64,000 nt of DNA. Origin: a virus. Below, one piece after another: positions 39,464 through 45,158 of this stretch; the stretch's first letter is position 1, and each line of letters opens with the position of its first letter. The notes under the pieces were generated by a model, which worked only from the letters and a program-made list of their open reading frames with translations, was not told the origin of the DNA and made no database searches. The translations under genes were made by a program, and so were the position numbers. Location of the stretch: IMG/VR virus record IMGVR_UViG_3300037852_000055, positions 36,045 to 100,044 of that record; one strand, given 5' to 3'.

Positions 39464-39553
39464 CCCGAACCAATCCCTAAAGATTTAAAACTTGATAAGG
39501 CAGAGCGCAGAGAAGCGATTAAGAAACAAACTCAGGCGGAAAAGCCCCGGTAA
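39464..39553 (+). pseudogene. Start-less coding fragment (3' exon or gene remnant)
   Basis: The frame CCC GAA CCA to TAA reads PEPIPKDLKLDKAERREAIK and ends TQAEKPR. It has no ATG, GTG or TTG, and a TAG stands just before it. The composition is clearly protein-like. It could be the displaced C-terminus of the gene at 37805, separated by the endonuclease cassette, or a 3' exon of a further intron. Confidence 0.5.
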
Positions 39554-39614
39554 ATGTTCAGAAATATTTACCATACATACGTGTGGGTTAACCGAAGTAG
39601 TAGGTAATAAGTAT

Positions 39615-41632
39615 ATGGCACTATTAGAGGCTTAACAACAGCAGGCCTCGTTAAATTTCTCCTGATTGTCTTGGAACCTGTGACGGTAACAAGGCGGAAG
39701 ATTTAGAAAAAGTAGCACACAATTTCTAAATCACCGTGAGAGACTAAGCGGAGAAACGTCCAAGGACGATGCGATAGTCCGAGCTTTACGAGAACAGAAT
39801 CGTAAGAGGTTGGCAGAAATGACTAACCATGCATTTTACAATGCATTAACAAAATGGCTGTAGAAGCAGTCGAACTGGACGCCTTTGCTAAGGAAATTCC
39901 TGATTTGGTTTTCCATGGCACAACGGCCTACAGTATGTTCAAAAACGAAGCTACGAAGATCCCTGTGTCTAACCAGAGTAACGCTGGTGGCGTGCAGAGA
40001 CCAAGCTTCAGAGTACCTTTCCGGGTACAGGCTGGTGCTGCAATTAGCCAAGGCACTGGCAACGCAGATTCAATGAACCGGGGAACTGGTAGCCAATGGG
40101 CTTCCTTTGCTCTGGCTCCCGTATATCTGTTTAATGTCTGTGAAATTTCTTGGCTGGCCCAGGCTTCAACGGACAGTAAGCAGAAGGGTTTGTTCGCTGT
40201 CAAAGCCCAGGAGATGAAGAATTCTCTGGATGCGGCTATGCAAGGCATCGAGGGCCTAATCAACTCCGATGGTTCTGGTATGATTGACCAGATTCCTAGC
40301 ACTGCGACCATTGTGCTTTCTGGTGGTTCCCCTGCTTCACAAACTGCTAGTATCGCAGGAGTGAACGTTGCTGTGGCCTTTACGGATCAGCAAGTAGTTC
40401 AGTTCTTCAGTACTGGCGGGGTTCAGCGTACAGGTGGACGTACAACTGCGACCATCTCCTATTCTGATGGCCCAAGCAACACTTTGTACTTCAGTACCGC
40501 TCTCCCTACCGACGTAGTTGTTACCGATTACATCGTTGTGGCTGGCGCAACTTATGGAGCTGGTAACTCCATTCTGGGTATTAAGGCTTGGGATGTGAAT
40601 AGCAATACTGGAACTATCGGCGGATTGAATCGCAATGCTTATCCTGGCCGTTTGAGCACCCCAACCATTAATTTGGCTGGAGCAGCTTTGACCCCAGGCA
40701 TCGGGCAACGCGCAGAAGTACTCCTAGGCCGCGCCCTAGGACCAGATGCGGACAGCATTAAGTCGGGCATTTGGTATGGCCCACCTGAGCAAGCATTCGC
40801 ACAGAGCAATTTGATGTACAATGTGCAAATTGCAAATGCCCAGGATATTAAGGGAGACAAAACCCTTGACATGGGTAAGAAGTACTTCAGTGATACGTTC
40901 TGCGGACGCAAGTATCACAAGAGCTGGACTGCGATTAACAACCGCATGGATTTGCTTGTACTAGACAACTGGTACATTGGAGAGTTGAGCCCACTTGAGC
41001 TGTACGACTTCGGTGGCGGTGAGAAATAACGCTGCTCTATTCAGAAATGAATATTGTGAATCGAGAGAATTCAGGGAAACTCCTTAATGGACAATCCTGA
41101 GCCGAGCCTCGCAAGGGGAAGGTGCAACGACTATTCCGAAAGGAAGTAGGGAACAGTGTTCCCGAAGTACTCGATACCCGTTAGGGTAATGATATAGTCT
41201 GATCTTACAAGGAATTGTGAGAGAGCAAATGGAAACGATTTGCTCGTAACATGAATGAACGTAGTTGCTCCTGTTCCAGACATTAATGGTCAAGCTGGAA
41301 CTTCTAGTTATTTGACCTCGCACATGTTTGCGTATAATACGTGCTTGTCCCAAAAGGTTAGAGCACTTTAAATTCAATCTGATTGACTCGAACCCTGAGA
41401 TGGCAACGAGGCGGAAGGCAAGTTTTTTTGTAACAAAACTTGACACCGTGAGAGACTAAGCGATTGAACACAGTAATGTGATGCAATAGTCCGAGCTTTA
41501 CGAGAACAAAATCGTAAGAGTGTAGCAGAAATGACTACACCATGCTTAAGCATGCAACAATAACGTAACCTAGCAAACGCCGCTCCCAGAGCGGGTCTTT
41601 ATGTGCAAAATGCTGCGGTTCCAACAGTATAA
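39615..41632 (+). CDS. Major capsid protein, four exons
   Basis: Exons 39615-39632, 39857-41020, 41258-41358 and 41566-41632 join to 450 codons including the stop (449 residues). Exon 1 encodes only MALLEA; exon 2 continues AVEAVELDAFAKEIPDLVFH; exon 3 gives NVVAPVPDINGQAGTSSYLT onward; exon 4 ends NLANAAPRAGLYVQNAAVPT V. The joined N-terminus has the helix-then-loop form of HK97-like capsid proteins, and gene order (scaffold just before) agrees. Without splicing, translation from 39615 would stop after six codons. An ATG at 39854 at the end of intron 1 would give a nearly full exon 2 product ending GGGEK. The ribosome site (AGGT) is weak. Confidence 0.8.
39633..39856 (+). ncRNA. Group I intron 1 of the capsid gene (224 nt, no ORF)
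   Basis: P1: exon GAGGCU pairs with internal guide GGCCUC (39644-39649), with the required U-G pair at the splice site. P10: ACAGC just upstream of the guide pairs with GCUGU, the start of exon 2. P3 UUUCUCC/GGAGAAA; P7 GACUA/UAGUC (GUGAGAGACUAAGCG and GCGAUAGUCCGAGC); a 10-pair arm GAUUUAG/CUAAAUC; P9 hairpins; last base G (39856). All the signs of a group I ribozyme are present. Confidence 0.88.
41021..41257 (+). ncRNA. Group I intron 2 of the capsid gene (237 nt, no ORF)
   Basis: Exon end GGCGGU pairs with guide GCUGCU (41031-41036), U-G at the splice site. P3 region UCAGG...CCUGA; the classical strings GACAAUCCUGAGCC, GUGCAACGACUAUUCC and AUGAUAUAGUCUGAUC give P4, P7 (GACUA/UAGUC) and neighbours; UACCC/GGGUA and GAGCAAAU/GAUUUGCUC hairpins. 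It differs in core sequence from introns 1 and 3 and is closer to T4 td-type or tRNA-Leu-type introns. The 3' end (41257) is set by frame and a terminal G; P10 is weak, so it may be off by a few bases. Confidence 0.82.
41359..41565 (+). ncRNA. Group I intron 3 of the capsid gene (207 nt, no ORF)
   Basis: Closely related to intron 1: shared GAUUG(U/A)CU and GAGGCGGAAG, CACCGUGAGAGACUAAGCG, AUAGUCCGAGCUUUACGAGAAC and the P9 end. P3 is UUCAAUC/GAUUGAA here against UUUCUCC/GGAGAAA in intron 1, a compensated change. P1 is short (AAAGGU with GC-A-CUUU), so the 5' boundary is less certain. The 3' end is G 41565. Frame continuity through exon 4 supports the joint. Confidence 0.8.
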
Positions 41633-41702: not shown

Positions 41703-41746
41703 GGGAGCAGCCTGACACTGCTCCCGATTCCATAAATCGTGTCAGG
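41703..41746 (+). promoter_or_regulatory. Endonuclease-type pseudoknot leader V
   Basis: GGGAGCAG/CTGCTCCC (41703-41725) with loop CCTGACA complementary to TGTCAGG (41740-41746). The single-stranded linker of the other leaders is here a small GATT/AATC hairpin. AGGAG and ATG 41760 follow. Confidence 0.72.
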
Positions 41747-41759
41747 AGATTTTATTAGG

Positions 41760-42299
41760 ATGCCAACCAGCAAAGGAACATTGCATTTAAGTAGTACAAA
41801 ACTTGAGAAGTATGGAATTACAGCAGAGATGTACAGGGAGTCTAGAGAAAAAGGGCTAAAGTGGTGTGGATGGCACAAGAGGTTTGAAGAGCCTTTGTTG
41901 TTTAATAAAGGGTGTAAGTTGTGTAGAGAAGGTGCCAAAGAAAGAGACAGGGAACTTTATGGTAAGTTTGGGAATGCAAGAAAACACCATGCTCCTAAAA
42001 ACCACTATGAAGATACTTTGTTAAAGCAAGACGGACACTGTGCATTATGCTCAGCAACTGAAGGAACAGGTCTTCATATTAGGCTACACATTGACCATGA
42101 CCACAAGTGCTGTAACAAAAAATCTTCCTGTGGCAAGTGCTTACGGGGTCTTCTTTGTTGGGAATGCAACCATCAATTGGGAAGATTAGAAGAACTGCTA
42201 ACACAAGTAGAAACCATTGTTCCCGCCCCCGGTACGTGGCTAGAGAAAGCCTTGGGGTATCTTAAGCATTGGCAAGAGGTTCATAATGGTACTCACTGA
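41760..42299 (+). CDS. Endonuclease VII-type HNH endonuclease (free-standing)
   Basis: ATG 41760 (MPTSKGTLHLSSTKLEKYG) follows AGGAG at about 11 bases. The 179-residue protein has a Cys/His knuckle (KWCGWHKRF, CKLCREG) and then the catalytic block GHCALCSATEGTG, LHIDHDHKCCNKK and CLRGLLCWECNHQLG typical of endonuclease VII. The C-terminal helix ALGYLKHWQEV resembles the gene at 14410. It lies 128 bases after the capsid stop with its own promoter, so it is well placed to mobilise capsid-gene introns in trans. Confidence 0.85.
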   Translation: MPTSKGTLHLSSTKLEKYGITAEMYRESREKGLKWCGWHKRFEEPLLFNKGCKLCREGAKERDRELYGKFGNARKHHAPKNHYEDTLLKQDGHCALCSATEGTGLHIRLHIDHDHKCCNKKSSCGKCLRGLLCWECNHQLGRLEELLTQVETIVPAPGTWLEKALGYLKHWQEVHNGTH

Positions 42300-43569: not shown

Positions 43570-44391
43570 ATGTGGTTTAAGAAAAAGCCCAAGGTGGAAC
43601 CTAAGGTTGTACCTTTGGAGCCTGTAGAAGAAAAAGAAGAGCCACTAGAACCTGTATGTTCTATTAGGTATAGTAGAGAATTAACCTCAGGGCTAAATAG
43701 GGGACATGCTTTTCCTCCAGTATTTGCAAATGTGCCAGAGTATAATTATCTCAATAGGGTGTGGGTATACAACGTAAGTACTATGGATTTTGAAGTTGAT
43801 AACCCAGTACTTAAAGTAGCTAAGATACCAGGAAGAACTTTAGAAGAGAAATACTCTGTATACACTAGTTTTCCAATGGCAATGAAGATGCCCAAAGAAA
43901 ATGTGGATAATGGAGAAGTTCAGTTTGTGTTTATGGATGGCAGACGTTTTGCAATGGATCTTATAAACCCAGACAATTTAGGCCTAGATCAAGATGCTAA
44001 GTTAATATACATCACTTCCCCAGGAAGAGACCTAGGAGCAAAGGGAGTTTTCTGGTCATTACAAAATCCTCCTCCTAAAGAAGCAATAGATGCGGCTAGG
44101 AAACGCATGGTTAAGCGTTACAAAATGCTTCTGGAGCAAGTTGGTACTAAAATTTTTGTAACAGGTATGTCTTTTAACCAGAAAGTAAAAGCATTGGTTA
44201 GTGAGTTTAAGAAGACTAAGTACTATGCTCAGTATAAACCTAAGCAGCTTAAGCAAATGGCTGAAGACCGTATAAAGTTTCAATTGGGAATTACACCGGA
44301 GCACCATGCAGCCGCAGAGCATTATAAGTTGAAGACCGAGTGGCACCCAGCATTAGAACCTAGACTCAGGAGAACTCAGAAATGCCAGTAG
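43570..44391 (+). CDS. Virion-associated protein, paralogue of 46560
   Basis: ATG 43570 follows GACTCAGGAGATGACTCAG. The 273-residue protein shares with the 46560 product the blocks PLNLPKGNVDSNEV-like (MKMPKENVDNGEVQFVF), DMINPDNLG-QDA, DLGAKG-FWSL and SPEHHAAAEY. A Pro/Glu-rich N-terminus precedes. The pair may be duplicated head or connector components; no known family is recognised. Confidence 0.6.
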   Translation: MWFKKKPKVEPKVVPLEPVEEKEEPLEPVCSIRYSRELTSGLNRGHAFPPVFANVPEYNYLNRVWVYNVSTMDFEVDNPVLKVAKIPGRTLEEKYSVYTSFPMAMKMPKENVDNGEVQFVFMDGRRFAMDLINPDNLGLDQDAKLIYITSPGRDLGAKGVFWSLQNPPPKEAIDAARKRMVKRYKMLLEQVGTKIFVTGMSFNQKVKALVSEFKKTKYYAQYKPKQLKQMAEDRIKFQLGITPEHHAAAEHYKLKTEWHPALEPRLRRTQKCQ

Positions 44392-45158
44392 GGGATCGTT
44401 TAGCAAGAGGTGATGCCAGTGCTCAGTTTACTACTGGGTCTGGACTCAGTGATTTTCAGCATGACCTAGCTGTACGACCAGAAATTGTGTCTGAGAAGTA
44501 TGGGCTAAGTCAAGTAGAAGTAGCTCAATACATGGTGCAAAGAGAGCGTGGGGAAGCCCTGCCAGACCTTAAGGCTGTAGATACGGATGAATCTCAGGAC
44601 ATTGCTGGGGGTATATCTGTAGTAGATAAAAGACATACCTATGACTCTAAGCCTATAAAGAAAGCAGAGAAAAAGTTTCAGGATAAGGAGTATTCAGATC
44701 CTTCTACAATTCTTGACCGTATCTTAGTTAAGCGCATTCCAGAGGATGAGGAGAGGTTTGAAATTCTTGAGGATGGAAGTCTAAGAAACAAGGAAACAGG
44801 ATTTGTTATTCCTTACGCTTACCGCCAACACAACAACATTGGTATTGTATTAGCAGTGGGGCAATTTGTAGTCCTTGGAGGACTCAGGGTGCCCATGGGT
44901 GCAATTGTACGCCCAGGTGATCGCGTGACGTTCGGTGATTACAATTCAGAGGTTTATAAACAACCAACAGAAAAGACTAAGAAAATGTGTGATGCAGTAC
45001 AGATGAACTATGAGGCAGATGAAGAAGGACTACGAGTGGTTCGTGTACAGGATATACGTACTGTAGAGCGTCCTAAGCAAATGTCATGGTTTAAAACTCT
45101 GTTAGTTTCATTTCGTACTCTATACCTTACTCAGGGGGTTTACGATGGGAGAACCTAG
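44382..45158 (+). CDS. GroES-like (Cpn10) co-chaperonin with N-terminal extension
   Basis: Residues about 107-235 follow the Cpn10 pattern: ILDRILVKRIPEDEERFEIL, GFVIPYAYRQHNNIGIVLAV (mobile loop then beta strand), GAIVRPGDRVTFGDYNSEVY and LRVVRVQDIRTVE. Cpn10 is normally about 95 residues; here 105 extra residues precede it. Phage co-chaperonins (T4 gp31 type) let host GroEL fold the major capsid protein. The nearby capsid gene supports that role. It could also be a virion protein built on this fold. Confidence 0.65.
   Translation: MPVGDRLARGDASAQFTTGSGLSDFQHDLAVRPEIVSEKYGLSQVEVAQYMVQRERGEALPDLKAVDTDESQDIAGGISVVDKRHTYDSKPIKKAEKKFQDKEYSDPSTILDRILVKRIPEDEERFEILEDGSLRNKETGFVIPYAYRQHNNIGIVLAVGQFVVLGGLRVPMGAIVRPGDRVTFGDYNSEVYKQPTEKTKKMCDAVQMNYEADEEGLRVVRVQDIRTVERPKQMSWFKTLLVSFRTLYLTQGVYDGRT

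What the first reader, a model, noticed from the sequence alone, without database searches (positions are those of the whole stretch)
39615..41632. Major capsid gene split by three ORF-less group I introns, first exon of six codons
Splicing at 39632/39857, 41020/41258 and 41358/41566 restores one frame of 450 codons with capsid-like order in the gene map. P1 with the U-G pair is visible for introns 1 and 2, P10 is clear for intron 1, and P3, P7 and P9 can be drawn for all. Group I introns in phages are well known, but three in one capsid gene is unusual, and such a short first exon means almost no capsid is made without splicing. Capsid output thus depends fully on RNA splicing.
Basis: partly seen in the sequence, partly recalled or inferred. 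Interest (0 to 1): 0.88.

Follow-up and report, generated by a model that had tools for sequence, protein, structure and literature searches.

The report
Phage capsid gene riddled with introns
The gene for this phage's shell protein is cut into four pieces by three self-splicing group I introns, and in related phages the same gene carries introns at over twenty other places, including tiny introns without a catalytic core that look as if a neighbouring intron must cut them out.

Summary
The three introns are real. Six full-length intron-less relatives (87-91% identical) read straight through all three junctions. Covariance models built only from other phages' introns hit all three (162, 212 and 187 bits) and nothing else in the 100-kb record. 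P3, P4, P6, P7, P8 and P9 covary. One coordinate is wrong: exon 3 ends at 41346, not 41358, so the product has 445 residues. A model of an intron-less homologue has the HK97 capsid fold.

The larger find lies in the relatives. In about 36 contigs this one gene carries group I introns of two sequence families at 23 sites, with up to seven elements per gene. A phage about 95-96% identical to this one shares none of its intron sites; exon identity falls from 96% to about 73% exactly at two of that phage's intron sites. In about nine distinct contigs, at three sites including that of window intron 1, the insert is only 34-49 nt. It has P1, the U-G pair and a terminal G but no catalytic core, and it always lies one short exon upstream of a complete family-A intron. 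I propose these are core-less group I introns spliced by the neighbour's core. No RNA evidence exists yet.

The parts
39615..39632 (+). capsid gene exon 1 (MALLEA, six codons)
   Evidence: Intron-less relatives have MALLEA joined directly to exon 2.
39633..39856 (+). group I intron 1, family A, ORF-less, 224 nt, site aa 6; ends in an in-frame ATG
   Evidence: R1 model (built without the window) 161.8 bits, 3.4e-39; P1 GAGGCU/GGCCUC; same site holds a full intron in L041, L045, L047 and a core-less insert in L059.
39857..41020 (+). capsid gene exon 2 (aa 7-394)
   Evidence: Co-linear with intron-less homologues.
41021..41257 (+). group I intron 2, family B, ORF-less, 237 nt, site aa 394
   Evidence: R2 model 212.1 bits, 1.2e-63; Rfam RF00028 73.1 bits; blastn match to the intron-bearing gene of Staphylococcus phage Twort.
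41258..41346 (+). capsid gene exon 3 (aa 395-424, part)
   Evidence: 5' splice site corrected from 41358 to 41346 by relatives and by P1.
41347..41565 (+). group I intron 3, family A, ORF-less, 219 nt, site aa 423 phase 2
   Evidence: R1 model 187.1 bits, 1.6e-45; P1 GUGCUU/GAGCAC; same site in L016, L020, L022, L023, L045, L057.
41566..41632 (+). capsid gene exon 4 and stop codon
38737..39348 (+). free-standing GIY-YIG/NUMOD3 homing-endonuclease gene just upstream
   Evidence: Pfam GIY-YIG 2.7e-10; 38% identical to the endonuclease inside intron aa21 of L020. Proposed helper in intron spread; not shown.
41739..42299 (+). free-standing endonuclease VII (HNH-type) gene just downstream
   Evidence: Pfam 4e-13; 38% and 47% identical to endonucleases inside capsid introns of L042 and L048.
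39500..39614 (+). 5' leader with conserved ACTCAG and (C/U)UCAGA motifs, the second in the loop of a variable hairpin
   Evidence: Seen by eye in the aligned leaders; RNAalifold finds no consensus; no Rfam match.

Best explanation
This is the major capsid gene of an uncultivated tailed phage, interrupted by three self-splicing group I introns of two families. Introns 1 and 3 are family A, intron 2 is family B. After transcription each intron folds its own core, pairs its guide sequence with the exon end (P1, U-G at the splice site) and excises itself, leaving one 445-residue HK97-fold capsid protein. The gene is a standing target for such introns in its clade: they are gained, lost and exchanged with flanking exons between phages, with homing endonucleases inside introns or next to the gene as the likely drivers. 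Shown here: the gene structure, the intron folds, the many sites and the recombination signature. Inferred: splicing in the cell, the role of the endonucleases, and the way introns reach new sites.
For: Intron-less homologues read through all three junctions in frame. Models built from other loci only: 161.8, 187.1 and 212.1 bits, and no other hit in the 100-kb record beyond these introns. Family A pairs: 96.6% of cells paired, 37 of 48 pairs with compensatory change, versus 9-15 for slid controls; P7 itself covaries. Family B: 42 of 58 pairs with compensatory change. The reliably placed full introns of the clade start after a U and end in G, nearly all with a P1 closed by U-G (the mapping rewards U and G, P1 was not used in it). 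Capsid fold: AlphaFold model pLDDT 78, pTM 0.79; 288 PDB chains with E<=0.001, the top 50 being phage or phage-like heads; best BFVD match is a phage major capsid protein, 2.4e-23. 23 sites in about 36 contigs. Window and L039 are 94-96% identical over several kb yet share 0 of 7 sites, with exon identity falling at L039's intron sites aa33 and aa328.
Against: No RNA data: splicing is inferred. The in-frame ATG at the end of intron 1 leaves room for unspliced expression of exon 2. No family library recognises the capsid protein by sequence; its identity rests on the predicted fold and on gene order. Records are metagenomic assemblies and some near-identical contigs were counted separately.
Confidence: 0.93

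Rival explanations
1. Intron 1 is not needed: translation starts at ATG 39854, and 39615-39853 is untranslated leader.
For: In-frame ATG with 391 open codons; in L045 the site-6 intron also ends in ATG.
Against: MALLEA is conserved and contiguous in intron-less relatives; no Shine-Dalgarno sequence before 39854; full group I fold at 161.8 bits with P1 and P10; L047's intron at the same site ends in CTG.
Confidence: 0.05
2. The gene is decaying: introns and inserts mark a dying or duplicated capsid gene, with another copy doing the work.
For: L044 has frame breaks and L015 a 10-nt insert at aa6.
Against: The window exons are fully open and collinear with relatives; L039 differs from the window at 144 of 1338 CDS positions yet translates to a nearly identical protein; only one place in the record matches the gene at DNA level.
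Confidence: 0.02
3. The 34-49-nt inserts in relatives are translational bypass elements (as in T4 gene 60), not introns.
For: Similar length and early stop codons.
Against: Take-off and landing codons do not match at sites aa15 and aa21; all have a guide sequence pairing with the exon end, closed by U-G, and end in G; full group I introns occupy the same sites elsewhere.
Confidence: 0.05
4. The short inserts are assembly artefacts or collapsed alleles.
For: Metagenomic contigs only; L015 carries just 10 nt.
Against: About nine distinct contigs, at least six sequence types, three sites, matched compensatory changes between exon and guide (L019 versus L045), and a constant arrangement with a downstream family-A intron.
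Confidence: 0.05

Closest known systems
Group I introns of Staphylococcus phage Twort (three introns in one gene, exon skipping; Landthaler and Shub 1999, cited in PMC11878797)
   Same: Three small group I introns in one phage structural gene; window intron 2 matches the Twort gene at DNA level.
   Different: Another gene (listed as tail tube protein in one Twort record); to my knowledge no core-less members and not twenty-odd sites within one gene.
Mycobacteriophage LittleE capsid intron (PMC3706429)
   Same: A probable group I intron in a phage major capsid gene, splicing shown by RT-PCR and N-terminal sequencing.
   Different: One intron of about 819 bp with an endonuclease gene; here three ORF-less introns and a clade-wide hot spot.
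Faustovirus E12 major capsid gene (PMC6247863)
   Same: A viral capsid gene with many introns, five of them group I, and very short exons.
   Different: Virus of amoebae; the other seven introns are spliceosome-like.
Bastillevirinae group I introns (PMC11878797)
   Same: Up to three group I introns per phage gene.
   Different: DNA polymerase and terminase genes; mean length about 802 nt; capsid not mentioned.
Spliceozymes (engineered, PMC4094466)
   Same: A group I core removes a separate core-less intron, the mechanism proposed here for the mini-introns.
   Different: Laboratory construct whose guide sequence lies on the ribozyme; here the guide lies in the mini-intron.
Group III introns of Euglena plastids (own knowledge)
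   Same: Core-less descendants of self-splicing introns thought to depend on help from outside.
   Different: Derived from group II, not group I, introns.

Membership tests
Group I intron (window introns 1-3) | P1 with U-G at the 5' splice site | tested here: met
   6 bp each at 39632, 41020 and 41346; alone each reaches only a shuffle fraction of 0.02-0.04.
Group I intron (window introns 1-3) | terminal guanosine | tested here: met
   G39856, G41257, G41565.
Group I intron (window introns 1-3) | P3, P4, P6, P7, P8 core with covariation | tested here: met
   window scores against models made without it.
Group I intron (window introns 1-3) | Rfam RF00028 match | tested here: inconclusive
   Intron 2 only (73.1 bits); introns 1 and 3 missed even at E<=5.
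Group I intron (window introns 1-3) | GTP-dependent self-splicing and exon joining | not testable with these tools
   Needs RNA.
HK97-fold major capsid protein | HK97 fold | tested here: met
   Model of an intron-less homologue (L005), pLDDT 78; HK97 1ohg TMt 0.62, E 6.7e-8; top PDB match E 1.3e-10.
HK97-fold major capsid protein | sequence match to a known capsid family | tested here: not met
   No Pfam or PHROGs family; one of 20 homologues shows a weak PHROG major head hit, E 0.074. Not a defining requirement of the fold; the family may simply be undescribed.
Core-less inserts of relatives as group I introns | P1 with U-G and terminal G | tested here: met
   5-9 bp; shuffle fractions 0.00005 to 0.004, L025 0.02.
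Core-less inserts of relatives as group I introns | own catalytic core (P3-P8) | tested here: not met
   34-49 nt; no room for a core. They are therefore not filed as autonomous group I introns.

The most novel reading that the evidence does not exclude
Natural core-less group I introns exist. Inserts of 34-49 nt that keep only P1, usually an A-rich joining stretch, and the terminal G are cut out of capsid pre-mRNA by the catalytic core of a complete family-A intron that lies one short exon (18 to about 83 nt) downstream, so that one ribozyme performs two splicing reactions. These would be the group I counterpart of the step by which core-less introns became dependent on a shared catalytic RNA.
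Probability: 0.55. Interest if true: 0.93.

Novelty: new variant of a known kind. Interest (0 to 1): 0.8.

Why it matters
Group I introns in phage genes are old news, but one essential, highly expressed gene holding them at 23 sites across a single clade, with full turnover between phages about 95% identical, is a natural record of intron gain and loss. If the core-less inserts are spliced by a neighbour's core, they show in phages the step long assumed in the origin of spliceosomal introns: an intron gives up its own catalyst and lives off another one. That can be tested with short transcripts in a test tube.

Tried and rejected
(1) Rfam alone: finds intron 2 only, even at E<=5 in the focused stretch, so custom models were built. 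(2) My early idea that the upstream GIY-YIG gene lies in a fourth intron of the preceding gene, with a C-terminal exon ending near 39551: rejected, because the stretch aligns with L039's leader but does not keep a reading frame there. (3) Phage record collection: no protein relative of the capsid, so all relatives come from viral contigs. (4) A scan of bacterial and archaeal genomes found no relative, so no host or prophage. (5) First structure model with 20 sequences was poor (pLDDT 47); 50 sequences gave 78. (6) Translational bypass for the mini-inserts: codons do not match. (7) Exon skipping instead of mini-intron removal: would delete FAKEIP or DLVFHGTTAYSM, which are conserved. (8) A second hairpin straddling the 3' splice site of the minis looked conserved (L045, L039, L053, L059) but is absent or weak in L316 and L025, so it is not used as evidence. 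(9) Consensus folding of the 5' leader gave nothing, probably from poor alignment. (10) Pattern hits L318 and L320 for site aa15 are chance. (11) Hits of the spliced-alignment script at aa2-4 in distant relatives are artefacts of forcing MALLEA onto different N-termini.

Full report
WHAT IS IN THE WINDOW. The window is the last 64 kb of a 100,044-base virus record. At 39615-41632 lies one gene in four exons: 39615-39632, 39857-41020, 41258-41346 and 41566-41632, giving 445 residues and a stop.

WHY THESE ARE INTRONS. A scan with the exon-2 protein found 70 viral loci with the same gene. In L002, L004, L005, L012, L013 and L055 (87-91% identical) the gene is one unbroken frame through all three junctions, with MALLEA (or a close variant) directly before AVEAVEL. 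I then aligned ORF-less introns from other loci only, 30 of family A (A2) and 9 of family B (A3), and built models R1 and R2. They score window introns 1, 3 and 2 at 161.8, 187.1 and 212.1 bits; at the significance used there are no hits outside these three introns in the whole record. On A2 with P7 written as a pseudoknot, 96.6% of cells are paired, 37 of 48 pairs have changes on both sides and the covariation score is 0.546, against 0.06-0.09 for the six slid controls and 0.18 for shuffles. P7 covaries in three of its five pairs. Rfam's general model sees only intron 2.

WHAT THE GENE MAKES. No Pfam or PHROG family matches the exon-2 protein, PHROGs barely touch its homologues and no PDB sequence matches. 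An AlphaFold model of the intron-less homologue L005 with 50 diverse sequences (pLDDT 78, pTM 0.79) matches phage capsid proteins: PDB top hit cyanophage A-1(L) E 1.3e-10, HK97 itself 6.7e-8 with TMt 0.62; BFVD top hit Arthrobacter phage Jasmine major capsid protein 2.4e-23. 'Major capsid protein' is therefore well supported by fold, not by sequence.

HOW MUCH DEPENDS ON SPLICING. Unspliced RNA from the first ATG makes only MALLEA. Intron 1, however, ends in ATG in frame with exon 2, giving 391 open codons if a ribosome could start at 39854; no Shine-Dalgarno sequence precedes it. With only intron 1 removed the product stops after 396 residues; with introns 1 and 2 removed, after 431. So full-length capsid needs removal of introns 2 and 3; for intron 1 the need is likely, not proven.

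THE HOT SPOT. A protein-to-DNA spliced alignment that I wrote, rewarding U before and G at the end of introns, mapped introns in all relatives. In about 36 contigs (some near-identical) they sit at 23 sites: aa 6, 10, 15, 21, 33, 38, 100, 120, 147, 326, 328, 352, 377, 394, 416, 417, 419, 422, 423, 427, 431, 435 and 441; L015 has two more near its 3' end that I could not place. L045 has seven insertions. The introns fall into two families by sequence, each spread over a dozen or so sites, each with its guide matched to its own site. Window intron 3 (aa423) is about 75% identical to introns at aa416, aa419 and aa38, so related introns have reached many sites of one gene. Larger introns carry LAGLIDADG (aa100, 120, 147), GIY-YIG (aa21) or endonuclease VII type (aa377, 419) genes. 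Nearly all homologues below about 66% identity have an uninterrupted frame; exceptions are L047 (aa6, aa15) and L203 (aa10).

TURNOVER. L039 is a close relative: 94-96% identical DNA over several kb around the gene. Its capsid gene has insertions at aa21, 33, 100 and 328; the window's has aa6, 394 and 423: none shared. Exon identity is 96-97% from aa34 to aa328 and 71-87% outside, with the steps exactly at L039's aa33 and aa328 sites. That is what co-conversion of flanking exons during homing leaves (T4 literature, PMC2988022). The window's introns have no ORF, but free-standing GIY-YIG and endonuclease VII genes flank the capsid gene and are 38-47% identical to enzymes inside capsid introns of relatives. 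Collaborative homing by such neighbours (PMC2988022) is my preferred explanation for spread; it is inference. Reverse splicing could explain spread to new sites; it is not tested.

CORE-LESS INSERTS. At aa6 (L059, 46 nt), aa15 (L019, L020, L025, L040, L045 and its near copies L046 and L068, 39-41 nt) and aa21 (L039, L053 and its copy L054, L316, 34-49 nt) the gene has inserts too short for a core. Each follows a U, ends in G, breaks the frame, and carries a guide about 13-15 nt in that pairs with the exon end over 5-9 bp closed by U-G; shuffles reach this in 0.005-0.4% of cases (L025: 2%). Between L019/L020 and L040/L045 a silent exon change (CTT to CTA) is matched in the guide. Where the usual U is missing in L025 (GCC for GCT) the insert sits one base on, after the next U. 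Full introns occupy all three sites in relatives (L001, L041, L045, L047 at aa6; L047 at aa15; L019, L020, L040, L045 at aa21), so the inserts look like core-deleted introns. In all nine cases counted where a full family-A intron sits at aa21, 33 or 38 and the 5' side is readable, one such insert lies upstream; no other intron-bearing gene has one (a naive count gives p of order 1e-8, but related loci are not independent; there are five distinct arrangements). The simplest reading is that the downstream core excises both. This is a hypothesis; engineered spliceozymes show that a group I core can remove a separate core-less intron (PMC4094466).

NOVELTY. Phage capsid introns (PMC3706429), three introns in a phage gene (Twort; PMC11878797) and intron-rich giant-virus capsid genes (PMC6247863) are known. 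I found no report, in the library at hand, of a phage gene with this many sites or of core-less group I introns; most subscription journals are not in that library. The window gene itself is a new variant of a known kind; the mini-introns of its relatives, if they splice, would be more than that.

Noticed in passing
window 39500-39614; leaders of L002-L057 (A6): The leader before the capsid ATG keeps ACTCAG and, further on, (C/U)UCAGA in the loop of a hairpin whose stem varies in matched fashion (e.g. GUAGAC/GUCUAC, GCAAGA/UCUUGC, GUAGAA/UUCUAC); present with and without introns. Possibly a new regulatory RNA.
   Followed up: partly
L015 5973-6020: A 10-nt insert TAATAGTTAC at the aa6 site, identical to the first 10 nt of the 46-nt insert of L059, breaks the capsid frame; a deletion scar, a collapsed allele or a dead gene.
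   Followed up: partly
L022 7648-7670: A 23-nt exon lies between two full group I introns (aa416 and aa423).
   Followed up: no
L015 7532-8061, L038 6986-7222, L022 308-549: Further family-B introns at the very end of, just after, or well upstream of the capsid gene; host frames not worked out.
   Followed up: no
window 44382-45158: Downstream gene has a weak Cpn10 (co-chaperonin) match, Pfam 6.1e-05.
   Followed up: no
L044 4884-6720: Capsid gene with apparent single-base frame breaks (mapped as spurious 31-32-nt introns): sequencing errors or decay.
   Followed up: no
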